Shown here: piece after piece, positions 17,022 to 44,622 of the stretch | Layout of the letters: each line of letters opens with the position of its first letter | Numbering within the stretch: the first letter of the stretch is position 1 | NCBI GenBank assembly: GCA_026671195.1 | Contig: JAPOHD010000059.1 | Location: forward strand, 1 to 57,367 | Length of the DNA stretch: 57,367 nt | Reading direction: 5' to 3' | Source of the DNA: Draconibacterium aestuarii | GTDB lineage: Bacteria; Bacteroidota; Bacteroidia; Bacteroidales; Prolixibacteraceae | Translations under genes and position numbers: made by a program | Notes under the pieces: generated by a model | Databases searched by the model: none | Told to the model about the DNA's origin: nothing | What the model saw: the letters and a program-made list of their open reading frames with translations, nothing else

Positions 17022-17753
17022 ATGACAAAAGAAAATACAACCTACAGTGGCTTAACAAAGGAGCGATCAGACACTCCCAACCAATCGGTAGCCATATTTT
17101 TACAGGAAGCAGAAAACCTTTACCTGTGGAGCCTCAATGATGTTGAGCTATTAAGTTCGGTAGGCATCAAAAAAGACATAATTAATGAGTTGCCCCAACG
17201 CATAGAAGCATGCCGAATGGCACAGACCTCCTGGAACAATTATCGGCATTTGGAAGGAGAAGCACAAAAACAGTGGAAGCTACTGGCTCCGCAGGCAATG
17301 AAATTAAAAAAAGAACTTTTACAGGCCATGCGCTTTGCGTTTCGAAATAACAAACATCTGCTAGATTCAATTTCGGGCAAATCAAAAGACAGTGGACTGG
17401 AACATTTTTTTCAAGAACTTAATGATATTGCCGTACTTGGTCATGCGAATAAAGAATTACTGATTAATATCAATTTCGATTTATCACAGCTTGATGCTGC
17501 TGCCTCAAAATCGAAAGAGTTATCAGGACTCTGGGCTGAAACACACACAAGTGACAAAGAGAAGAACGAAGCCAGAAAACAACGCAATACCACTTTCTGG
17601 CATTTACACGAACTTGTTACCGAAATCCGAAACGCCGGTAAATATGTTTTCCGAAATGATAAAAGCAGGTATATCGGGTACATCAGCCCGTTTTGGAAGA
17701 ATAAATACAACAAACGGACTAAACCGAATAAACCACAAACGCCCGAATATTAG
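17022..17753 (+). CDS. Unrecognised helical protein beside the 21-bp array
   Basis: A 243-aa protein from the ATG at 17022 (MTKENTTYSGLTKER); an upstream ATG at 16971 in frame is less likely because it adds a non-conserved-looking 17-residue leader. It has no signal or membrane segment and is strongly helical and polar. Notable stretches are YLWSLNDVELLSSVGIKK, GLEHFFQELNDIAVLGHANK, and a basic C-terminal region (YVFRNDKSRYIGYISPFWKNKYNKR) that could bind nucleic acid. I recall similar uncharacterised proteins in other Bacteroidota but cannot name a family. The 21-bp repeat array begins about 28 bp after its stop, so a link between protein and array is worth testing. Confidence 0.7.
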   Translation: MTKENTTYSGLTKERSDTPNQSVAIFLQEAENLYLWSLNDVELLSSVGIKKDIINELPQRIEACRMAQTSWNNYRHLEGEAQKQWKLLAPQAMKLKKELLQAMRFAFRNNKHLLDSISGKSKDSGLEHFFQELNDIAVLGHANKELLININFDLSQLDAAASKSKELSGLWAETHTSDKEKNEARKQRNTTFWHLHELVTEIRNAGKYVFRNDKSRYIGYISPFWKNKYNKRTKPNKPQTPEY

Positions 17754-17780: not shown

Positions 17781-18010
17781 TACTGAGCGAGCAATAGTAG
17801 GTAGTAAACGAGCAACTATTTTTAGTAAACGAGCAACTTTTTTTACTGTACGAGCAACATTTCATATTAAACGAGCAATGTATTTTGGCTTACGAGCAAT
17901 GCTCGTTTACTAATAGTAATTACTCGTTCTATATTTTATCTTGCTCGTTTATCTTATTTTATTACACGTAACTTATTTTTATGTACTCGTATTCAGTTTT
18001 TATTTGCTCA
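17781..18010. repeat. Phased 21-bp array: six direct then six inverted units
   Basis: The core CGAGCAA occurs at 17788, 17809, 17830, 17851, 17872 and 17893, exactly 21 bp apart. The reverse-complement core (CTCG, with variants CACG and CTCA) follows at 17902, 17923, 17944, 17965, 17986 and 18007, again exactly 21 bp apart. The whole array is symmetric about position 17899. Unit consensus is roughly TAGTAAACGAGCAAC plus a T-rich spacer of six bases. Only the cores are mirrored; the spacers are not complementary. In one frame the left half reads as repeated Arg-Ala heptads, which I treat as a by-product of the 21-bp period. No promoter or terminator is obvious inside. Confidence 0.92.
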
Positions 18011-18086: not shown

Positions 18087-18347
18087 CCTGAGTTCGATTT
18101 AAATTTTAAAATTCAGATTGCAATAAAAAGCTGATTAGCAAGACAAATTTTTGAGGAATAGTGAACTAGTGCGCTAAAATTTGACGAAGCACATCCGATT
18201 TTTATTCAAAGCTTTTGTAAAAACACTTATAAACAGCAATCTTCTGCGTATAAATGATTCAAAATAGCCCACTATTCTTTCGTCATTTATACTTGCACCT
18301 TACTATTTCTAAGCGTTCTGAATCTAAAATTTTACGTCGAACTCAGG
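18087..18347. mobile_element. MITE copy 2 (261 bp)
   Basis: This is nearly identical to the copy at 8725-8984 and in the same orientation, with the same CCTGAGTTCGA ends. Differences are scattered substitutions plus a small replaced patch (CTAGTGCGCTAAAA in place of CTATTATGAAGAA, near 18166-18180). The second inner hairpin is intact, while the right arm of the first has additional mismatches (GCACATCCGATTTTTAT). A target duplication is not clear; TAAA occurs on both sides if the ends are taken as AACCTGAG...CTCAGGTT. It separates the 21-bp array from the terminator of the DsbD-like gene. Confidence 0.85.
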
Positions 18348-43035: not shown

Positions 43036-44316
43036 ATGAAGCTGAAATTCGTGCTTATTCTTTCGTTGCTACCAATATTGTCGTTCGCTCAAATTGATTA
43101 CAACAGCTATTTCAAAAATAAATCGTTGCGTTTCGACTTTCTTTTGGGAGGAAACAACAAAGAAGTGGTCGTATATCCGCAGGAAATGAAACAGGAACCT
43201 TATTGGGCCGGTTCGAAAACTAATTTAATCGATCCTTTAAACTATGGTAGTTATCGTTTCAGGGTATTCGATGCAAAATCCGACAGTCTGATTTTCAGCA
43301 AAGGTTTTAGTACACTTTTTCAGGAATGGCAAACTACTGCCGAAGCCAAACAAACCCACAAAACTTTTTACCAGGCAGCAATCTTTCCATATCCTAAAAA
43401 ACCTGTCAAACTTAAAATTGAAGCTCGCCAATGGGACGGAACTTTCGAAACACTATCTACAACTGAAATTGATCCGAAAGACTATTTTATTCTGAAAGAG
43501 CAGGCAAATAATTTCGAATCGGTTGACATTATAAATAACGGTAAACCTGAAAACAAAGTTGACCTGGTAATTTTGGCTGAAGGATATACAATTCACGAAA
43601 AAGAGAAATTTATAGCCGATGCAGAAAGAGTTTCGGGATATTTATTCGAGAAGAAACCTTTCAAATCGGAAAAAGAAAATTTCAATGTAAAGGCCGTATT
43701 CACTCCTTCCAATGAATCGGGGACCGATGTTCCGGGAGAGAACCTATACAATAACACACATTTCAACTCAAGCTTTTATACCTTCGACTTGCCACGCTAC
43801 CTTACTACCAGCGACATGAAAACGGTTTACGATGCTGCGTCGGTAGTTCCTTACGATCACATTTATGTTTTGGTAAATACTGAACGTTATGGCGGTGGCG
43901 GATTTTACAACTTTCTATCGGTTTGTACGGCCGATAACGAACTAACAGATAAAGTTTTTGTGCACGAATTCGGACATGGTTTTGCAGGATTGGGCGACGA
44001 ATATTATAACTCGGCCGTGGCTTACGAAAATTTTTACAACCTTGAAGTTGAACCCTGGGAAGCCAACATCACAACCTTGGTTGATTTTAATAAAAAATGG
44101 AAATCGATGATCGACAAATCAACTCCGGTTCCAACCCCCCGAAAAGACAAATACAAAAACACCGTTGGAGTATACGAAGGTGGCGGTTACATGGCAAAAG
44201 GAATTTACAGTCCGCATATCGACTGCCGGATGAAAACAAACGTTGCCGAAGGATTTTGCCCGGTGTGCGAGGAAGCAATTCGTAAGGTAATTCGGTTGTA
44301 TACAAATGAGGATTGA
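43036..44316 (+). CDS. M64-family secreted metallopeptidase (IgA-peptidase type)
   Basis: A 426-aa exported protein with signal peptide (1-18, cut near SFAQ), an N-terminal M64 domain of beta structure (about 20-150) and a catalytic domain with the zinc motif HEFGHGFAGLGDEYY (about residues 312-326; HExxHxxGxxD). A Cys-rich region near the end (DCRMKTNVAEGFCPVCEEAI) is typical of the family. M64 takes its name from the Clostridium ramosum IgA protease, but most members have unknown targets. The stop is followed within 12 bp by the second 21-bp-period array. Confidence 0.92.
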   Translation: MKLKFVLILSLLPILSFAQIDYNSYFKNKSLRFDFLLGGNNKEVVVYPQEMKQEPYWAGSKTNLIDPLNYGSYRFRVFDAKSDSLIFSKGFSTLFQEWQTTAEAKQTHKTFYQAAIFPYPKKPVKLKIEARQWDGTFETLSTTEIDPKDYFILKEQANNFESVDIINNGKPENKVDLVILAEGYTIHEKEKFIADAERVSGYLFEKKPFKSEKENFNVKAVFTPSNESGTDVPGENLYNNTHFNSSFYTFDLPRYLTTSDMKTVYDAASVVPYDHIYVLVNTERYGGGGFYNFLSVCTADNELTDKVFVHEFGHGFAGLGDEYYNSAVAYENFYNLEVEPWEANITTLVDFNKKWKSMIDKSTPVPTPRKDKYKNTVGVYEGGGYMAKGIYSPHIDCRMKTNVAEGFCPVCEEAIRKVIRLYTNED

Positions 44317-44328
44317 AGAGGTATAAGC

Positions 44329-44622
44329 TCCGTAATCCTCACAATTTTACCCGTTAAGCTCGCTTTTTTACTCGTAATCTTCCGAATTTTGCTCGTAATC
44401 CGCATAAATTATGCGGAAATCCTAATAATTTTACTGAACGACCTCACTTCTTTTTTGGAAAAGCTCGCTTTTTGTTAGAATTTCCTCACTTTTTTTGAGG
44501 TAAACGACATAAAATACGAGCCTTTCGACACAATTTTGCCCGTTACAGCTAAAAATGACGTGGTGTTCCTATGTTTTTACCCCACTGATGAGGATTTTTG
44601 CTTGTCTGACGAGGTTCTTAGT
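44329..44622. repeat. Second 21-bp-period array, degenerate (~14 units)
   Basis: Units start at 44329, 44350, 44371, 44392, 44413 and onward every 21 bp to 44602. The consensus is roughly CTCGTAATCCTCNNATTTTNN. The cleanest units are 44371 and 44392 (CTCGTAATC). The T-tracts keep the same phase even where the core has decayed: for example 44469, 44574 and 44595 differ by multiples of 21. A 19-bp perfect palindrome, TCCGCATAAATTATGCGGA (44399-44417), straddles two units. The CTCGT core and 21-bp period are shared with the array at 17781-18010, but here there is no clean two-arm symmetry. Confidence 0.75.

What the first reader, a model, noticed from the sequence alone, without database searches (positions are those of the whole stretch)
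17781..18010. Perfectly phased 21-bp array: six direct and six inverted copies around one dyad
The twelve cores fall at exact 21-bp steps on both arms (17788 to 17893 and 17902 to 18007) and are symmetric about position 17899. Twenty-one bp is two DNA helical turns, so every core faces the same side of the helix, as a multivalent protein-binding platform would need. The cores are conserved while the spacers vary, and the two arms are not complementary outside the cores, so selection seems to act on the cores and phase rather than on a long hairpin. I know of no described element with this layout. Structure is seen; function is inference.
Basis: partly seen in the sequence, partly recalled or inferred. 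Interest (0 to 1): 0.75.

Follow-up and report, generated by a model that had tools for sequence, protein, structure and literature searches.

The report
Protein gene with self-matched DNA array
Many relatives of an uncharacterised bacterial gene carry, next to the gene, a row of short DNA sites spaced two turns of the double helix apart, and the sites tend to change together with the tip of the protein, as if gene tip and target were one exchangeable part; what the pair does is unknown.

Summary
The array is real: six perfect CGAGCAA cores (17788-17893) and six mostly imperfect inverted cores (starting 17899-18004), all on 21-bp steps about 17899. It belongs to the gene before it (17022-17753), an unannotated all-helical protein with nine matches in its own genome. 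A 20/21-bp phased array follows the stop codon in 72 of 90 and 67 of 77 relatives scored, against 1 of 179 other genes. Two-arm symmetry recurs (44 of 122 arrays have a tight dyad) but is not required. Mirror-image cores match no better than other pairs, so no hairpin is being conserved. Cores differ widely between relatives. Only the protein's C-terminal tail tracks them (partial r 0.55; other windows at most 0.22), with a code-like pattern at one residue: His with GCAGG 9 of 9, Asn with ACAGG 14 of 15. In L003/L004, tail codons plus array are a divergent block (47-67%) inside an otherwise 83-100% identical locus. Best reading: a self-targeting DNA-binding protein whose specificity helix and multi-site target change as one cassette. 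Binding is inferred; the biological output is unknown.

The parts
17022..17753 (+). 243-aa protein gene, all-helical model, no Pfam family above cut-off; distant relative of NCBIfam NF052641 (PQLLE family, no function)
17682..17750 (+). codons of the C-terminal tail (residues 221-243, after conserved Y220); the region that tracks core type in relatives; residue 229 (tail position 9) is the position that varies with one core base in two clusters of relatives
   Evidence: predicted helix 223-233
17788..17899 (+). left arm: six perfect CGAGCAA cores at 21-bp steps
17899..18010 (-). right arm: six inverted cores at 21-bp steps, one perfect, five with 1-2 mismatches; dyad at 17899

Best explanation
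The array is the DNA target of the protein encoded next to it. The helical protein reads the 6-8 bp core with its basic C-terminal helix (about residues 222-237). One protomer or dimer sits on each core; because cores are two helical turns apart, all lie on the same DNA face and can touch, making a cooperative nucleoprotein complex on about 230 bp, in many relatives built outward from a central palindrome. Specificity changes fast: the 3' end of the gene (tail codons) and the array after it differ, or are swapped, as one block, so a new tail comes with matching sites. SHOWN by computation: gene-array association, phase, lack of mirror compensation, tail-core tracking, block boundaries in the pairs examined. 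INFERRED: binding, cooperativity, same-face contact, swapping as the cause of the block. GUESSED (about 0.3): the complex marks, holds or bridges loci in a self-specific way, in the manner of iteron or centromere complexes, with orphan arrays of the same core as partner sites.
For: Association: 72 of 90 and 67 of 77 relatives have a phased array in the 450 bp after the stop, against 1 of 179 other genes and 3 of 78 upstream regions. Phase: the self-match spectrum of 90 downstream regions, not restricted in period, peaks at 21 (887), 20 (346), 42 (724), 63, 84, 105 and 126 over a background of about 15. Within arrays core columns are 0.71-0.91 identical, spacer columns 0.32-0.45 (90 arrays; cores were chosen for similarity, spacers were not). 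Tail: partial r 0.56 and 0.55 for the two tail windows, at most 0.22 elsewhere; tail given body 0.395, 0 of 500 restricted permutations reach it; 0.62 for the 170 pairs with bodies at least 75% identical. All 35 loci with a CAGG-type core among 122: H9 with GCAGG 9 of 9, N9 with ACAGG 14 of 15. On the tree of the body alone, tail type and core switch together in at least two places (branch support not examined). TGCGAG cluster: D9 with final G 4 of 4, N9 with final C or T 4 of 4. L003/L004 (both flanks conserved): flanks mostly 92-100%, body 83-100%, block from about -35 to +240 at 47-67%. L013/L029: DNA 95-100% identical up to about 130 bp before the stop, 85% and 63% over the last 130 bp, then 30-45%; 16 of 18 residue differences lie at 212-241. 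L058, whose downstream DNA is cut off by a contig end, has a tail that predicts GGTGATAAC; such an array is present in the genome, near the end of contig C57.
Against: No binding experiment. Pairs are not independent; on 50 disjoint sister pairs tail identity separates 19 same-core from 23 different-core pairs (0.71 v 0.44, P 6e-7), but body identity does too (0.88 v 0.66, P 7e-4). Tail and array are adjacent, so hitch-hiking in recombination could tie them without recognition; the leader between stop and array tracks core only weakly (r 0.21), which argues against this, with a noisy measure. Non-coding DNA diverges faster than coding DNA in any case. In 34 short-tail relatives of 122 the tail cannot explain core differences (e.g. 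ISRYKRR with GTGGGG and with TCAGCG); there the best window is residues 24-35, r 0.39. Exceptions to a one-residue rule: one N9 with GCAGG (L031, weak core), K9 3 GCAGG and 1 ACAGG, S9 one of each, R9 2 GCAGG; two N9 tails have another core, CGAGTAA. 28 of 150 distinct loci have no array by this score. The model has no clear fold match.
Confidence: 0.72

Rival explanations
1. The array works as RNA: a long imperfect hairpin in the 3' untranslated region.
For: As RNA the window array folds better than all of 200 shuffles (z -3.46). In several CAGG-cluster relatives the array starts about 8 bp after the stop.
Against: Mirror-partner cores match no better than non-partners (0.760 v 0.763, 33 arrays). 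26 of 122 arrays are one-arm. In one clade a terminator-like hairpin, judged by eye, lies between stop and array. The phase is 20-21, that of B-DNA, not 22.
Confidence: 0.07
2. Mobile or satellite repeats: REP- or MITE-like DNA spread with or without a helper, with no role for core recognition.
For: 16 of 23 strong phased arrays in 1.66 Mb of the genome have no family gene within 1.3 kb. Gene plus array is absent between the same neighbours in G008. Only four pairs among the 91 loci share both flanks.
Against: Unequal exchange or copying would homogenise spacers too; spacers within an array are near random. Cores follow the protein tail. No transposase domain found.
Confidence: 0.1
3. Ordinary transcription factor with an autoregulatory operator array.
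For: The related PQLLE genes have phased arrays just upstream of their start.
Against: In this family the array is downstream (67 of 77, against 3 of 78 upstream), and the next ORF of 120 aa or more is convergent in 59 and codirectional in 53 of 122 loci (10 unscorable), so no promoter is consistently placed to be regulated.
Confidence: 0.15
4. Tail and array are linked only because they sit side by side in a recombining block; something else reads the cores.
For: By eye the block includes the terminator between them in one clade, and spacers group with core type: 0.587 identical for same-core, 0.516 for different-core pairs at equal body identity.
Against: The leader, closer to the array, tracks core less than the tail does (0.21 v 0.55). 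The same residue position varies with one core base in two separate clusters.
Confidence: 0.15

Closest known systems
Iteron-type replication initiators with their iterons (e.g. RepA of P1, RepE of F; recalled, no call)
   Same: One protein gene beside an array of sites about two turns apart, some of them downstream of the gene; orthogonal specificities.
   Different: No Rep domain found, all-helical model, no match in 72,556 plasmid records; two-arm dyad in many; specificity follows a C-terminal tail.
Partition centromere complexes (ParR/parC, ParB/parS clusters; recalled, no call)
   Same: Multivalent same-face binding to an array near the gene.
   Different: No ParB or ParR domain found; a partner NTPase was not looked for.
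REP/RAYT elements (recalled; PMC3733652 seen only in the search listing)
   Same: Gene plus nearby short inverted sites, with orphan copies elsewhere.
   Different: No Y1 transposase domain found; sites are phased arrays, not single palindromes.
BrickBuilt MITE of Porphyromonas gingivalis (PMC4596501, passages read)
   Same: Intergenic tandem repeats of similar size in a Bacteroidota genome.
   Different: 23-nt repeats without spacers, leader and tail with terminal inverted repeats; the passages read report no linked protein gene.
NCBIfam NF052641 PQLLE family
   Same: Distant sequence relative (E 2.8e-8); its genes also have phased arrays.
   Different: Window protein is below the family cut-off (33.7 v 80 bits); arrays there are upstream, and one-arm in the four that I read.

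Membership tests
Iteron replication initiator (Rep_3) | Rep initiator domain | tested here: not met
   Pfam scan, no match above cut-off
Iteron replication initiator (Rep_3) | Array of about 19-22 bp iterated sites next to the gene | tested here: met
Iteron replication initiator (Rep_3) | Sits on a plasmid or phage replicon | tested here: not met
   No match in the plasmid, phage and viral-contig collections
Iteron replication initiator (Rep_3) | Initiates replication at the array | not testable with these tools
   needs an experiment
REP/RAYT | Y1 transposase domain | tested here: not met
   Pfam and NCBIfam, no match
Partition system | ParB/ParR-type DNA-binding domain | tested here: not met
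   Pfam, no match
Partition system | Partner NTPase gene | not tested
   Neighbours differ between loci but were not scanned for NTPases
NCBIfam NF052641 PQLLE | Score above curated cut-off of 80 bits | tested here: not met
   33.7 bits, E 2.8e-8
Four-helix-bundle S23/IVP family | Same fold | tested here: inconclusive
Known anti-phage defence system | PADLOC model match | tested here: not met
   None for the window protein; one of 49 members matches PtuB at E 0.0038
Known RNA family | Rfam match at gathering score | tested here: not met
   0 matches in the window

The most novel reading that the evidence does not exclude
A previously undescribed class of self-specific protein-DNA loci: a helical protein whose C-terminal recognition helix and adjacent, helically phased, multi-site target evolve and are exchanged as one cassette, giving several mutually orthogonal specificities in one genome. 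Two further small protein families (157-aa and 107-aa) with phased signal beside some of their genes suggest a general architecture in these bacteria, and a C-terminal-only fragment that keeps a matching array (L086) could be a silent specificity cassette.
Probability: 0.55. Interest if true: 0.9.

Novelty: categorically new. Interest (0 to 1): 0.82.

Why it matters
If right, nature has already made a large set of matched protein tails and DNA cores, each core repeated several times beside its reader. That would make a protein-DNA recognition code readable from sequence alone, and would expose an unrecognised kind of chromosomal nucleoprotein locus in Bacteroidota. The rapid, linked change of reader and target is also a sign of conflict or self/non-self sorting that can now be tested.

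Full report
WHAT IS THERE. The array was confirmed base by base: six perfect CGAGCAA cores at 17788-17893 and six inverted cores starting at 17899-18004, every step 21 bp, dyad at 17899. The right arm is worn (1 perfect, 3 with one mismatch, 2 with two). Eight phased steps were seen against a maximum of 2 in 200 dinucleotide shuffles. The first core starts 35 bp after the last base of the stop codon of the 243-aa gene 17022-17753.

IT BELONGS TO THE GENE. The protein has no Pfam family above cut-off and is a distant relative of NCBIfam NF052641 'PQLLE family protein', below cut-off. It has nine matches (one a short fragment with stops) in its own genome and matches in 22 of 61 genomes searched, own included, and in 15 of 295 genomes of the order, own included. 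A scan of GTDB contigs gave 153 places, of which 80 were kept (Draconibacterium, Maribellus, Sunxiuqinia, Aquimarina, Marivirga, Carboxylicivirga and others). None was found in the plasmid, phage and viral collections. Downstream of 90 relatives the summed 6-mer self-match spectrum peaks at 20/21 bp and multiples up to 126 bp; upstream there is only a small bump at 21. Scored per locus, 72 of 90 have an array in the 450 bp after the stop, against 1 of 179 other genes of contig C20 (90 of the 95 loci then held, the other five being fragments or cut by a contig end). In the second set it is 67 of 77 downstream (of 80 loci) and 3 of 78 upstream. After removing duplicates there are 150 loci, 122 with an array: 55 two-arm, 26 one-arm, 32 palindromic-core, 9 mixed; steps of 20, 21 and 22 bp number 306, 729 and 49 (this scorer asked for partners at 20-22 bp, while one search did not restrict the period). 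Of the 55 two-arm calls, 44 have a tight dyad (cores starting 6-12 bp apart), 4 lack one central site, and 7 have a distant or odd second arm that may be chance.

DNA SITE, NOT HAIRPIN. Core columns are alike within an array (0.71-0.91; partly by construction) while spacers are near random (0.32-0.45). In 33 two-arm arrays with close arms, mirror-partner cores are no more alike than non-partners (0.760 v 0.763, P 0.52) and the same holds for spacers (0.390 v 0.398, P 0.71). One-arm arrays cannot form the hairpin. The 20-21 bp step is two turns of B-DNA. This supports protein sites on one DNA face. As RNA the window array does fold better than shuffles (z -3.46), as inverted cores must.

THE CORE CHANGES, AND THE PROTEIN TIP FOLLOWS. 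Cores range over CGAGCAA, TGCGAGG, CCTGTT, TGTAGGA, GGTGATAAC and many others. Protein similarity predicts core similarity only in part (Mantel r 0.42). A sliding-window scan over 693 pairs at least 55% identical (of 7,225) finds one region whose identity predicts core similarity beyond the rest of the protein: the C-terminal tail, partial r 0.56 and 0.55 (475 and 448 pairs scorable); all other windows lie between -0.30 and 0.22. Aligned on conserved Tyr220, tail identity given body identity has r 0.395 (508 of the 693 pairs; the rest have a tail under 8 residues), while body given tail has -0.09; none of 500 permutations within close clusters reached the tail value. The AlphaFold model (mean pLDDT 88.7) is all helix and puts residues 223-233 in a C-terminal helix; confidence falls to about 60 from residue 231.

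A CODE-LIKE PATTERN. I counted all 35 loci with a CAGG-type core among the 122. Tails with His at position 9 have GCAGG (9 of 9); tails with Asn have ACAGG (14 of 15; the exception L031 has a weak core). Lys tails are 3 GCAGG and 1 ACAGG, Arg 2 GCAGG, Ser one of each, and three tails are too short or missing. Two Asn tails in the same cluster have another core, CGAGTAA. On the tree of the body alone, tail type and core switch together in at least two places (L010/L065, and L024/L025/L028 against L026 and L012, branch support not examined). In the TGCGAG cluster, Asp at the same position goes with a final G (4 of 4) and Asn with C or T (4 of 4). Two loci were outside the fit. L062, whose array is displaced by an inserted element, has the TGTAGGA core of its tail type (I had seen its motif beforehand, so it is not a blind test). 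L058, whose downstream DNA is cut off by a contig end, has a tail of the GGTGATAAC type; I then searched for that core and the genome holds one clear such array, about 1.5 kb from the end of contig C57, and a looser run of three on C66; the reversed control pattern gave 2 and 5 matches against 8 and 6.

TAIL AND ARRAY AS ONE BLOCK. L003 and L004 lie in the same place with both flanks conserved. Flanks are mostly 92-100% identical and the body 83-100%, but from about 35 bp before the stop to about +240 identity is 47-67% (two further windows at 92% and 65%), then 92-100% again to about +1,240; their tails differ at N9/D9 and their cores at the last base. L013 and L029 are 95-100% identical in DNA up to about 130 bp before the stop, then 85%, 63% and 30-45% through tail and array; 16 of their 18 residue differences lie at 212-241. 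L067 and L068 show the same drop (body 87-95%, then 38%). L005 and L008 (downstream flank shared, upstream not) have body 92-100%, tail and array 55-58%, then mostly 80-95%. Less clean: L025/L026 fall more gradually, and L037/L040 are too diverged to tell. In the CAGG cluster, spacers of L010/L065 are nearest to arrays of the same core although their bodies are nearest to proteins of the other type. By eye L021 keeps spacers resembling those of L019/L067 but carries two kinds of changed core, so site-by-site change also occurs. L086 is a C-terminal fragment with a full array and no body, and it fits the Asn-ACAGG pairing.

SURROUNDINGS. In G008 the two neighbours of the window gene (M16 peptidase and DsbD) are adjacent, with neither gene nor array between them, so gene plus array is gained or lost together or nearly so. 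The same genome as the window has an array with the same core and no such gene nearby (L104). A scan of 1.66 Mb (26% of the genome; part of it chosen because it holds family genes) found 23 strong 20/21-bp arrays, against 0-4 for the other lag pairs tested and 8 for the overlapping 21/22 pair. Seven lie within 1.3 kb of a family gene and 16 do not; of these one is inside a long ORF and one (C67:51408) lies beside a broken C-terminal fragment. PQLLE genes show lag-20/21 signal in the few hundred bases before the start in 20 of 21 loci (low threshold, no background control, four read by eye). For a 157-aa family the mean lag-20/21 signal is 6.1 downstream and 5.4 upstream against 0.9 background, and for a 107-aa family 3.5 downstream, 0.8 upstream and 0.24 background (23 of 24 loci each; some members lack it).

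HOW IT PROBABLY WORKS. Shown: association, phase, independence of cores, tail-core tracking, block structure in the pairs named. Inferred: the tail helix reads the core, and protomers two turns apart assemble on one face, often from a central palindrome. Unknown: the output. Orthogonal, fast-changing specificities beside their own targets resemble incompatibility or self-recognition systems, so I favour a locus-marking or bridging complex over a plain operator, at about 0.3. Residue 229 and the tail are candidate determinants, not proven ones, and short-tail relatives (34 of 122) need another explanation.

COMPARISON. It works somewhat like iteron or centromere arrays, but no defining domain of those families was found (membership table). 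Seven searches of the held library listed no paper describing it. The verdict 'categorically new' rests on that, on the lack of a family for the protein, and on the linked tail-and-target block, for which I recall no precedent.

Noticed in passing
window 44310-44600: A second, degenerate 20/21-bp phased array with CTCG-type cores after a peptidase-like gene (43036-44316), without a family gene near.
   Followed up: partly
window 18087-18347: A ~261-bp element with inverted ends (CCTGAGTTCGA...TCGAACTCAGG) just after the array; a closely similar copy lies between stop and array of paralogue L062. MITE-like, judged by eye.
   Followed up: no
L104 4800-5065 (G000 C20:716804-717060): Orphan two-arm array with the window's core, between convergent genes, one of them a glycosidase-like ORF; no family gene.
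   Followed up: partly
L188-L207, L217: PQLLE-family genes carry phased arrays of direct cores just upstream of the start; several PQLLE copies in the genus are broken.
   Followed up: partly
L351-L374 and L375-L398: Two further small families (157 aa and 107 aa, no Pfam match above cut-off) show 20/21-bp phased signal beside some of their genes.
   Followed up: partly
L257, L258 downstream of the M16 gene: At the same M16-DsbD intergenic site, two relatives have a quite different repeat array (TTAAACGTTTGGTTAAAC, about 41-bp step, by eye) in the bases shown.
   Followed up: no
L086 1501-1900 (reverse of G033 C98): C-terminal-only gene fragment followed by a complete AACAGG array: possible silent tail+array cassette.
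   Followed up: partly
G000 C45:307188: Very strong phased array of near-identical ~41-bp units, no family gene within 1.3 kb.
   Followed up: no
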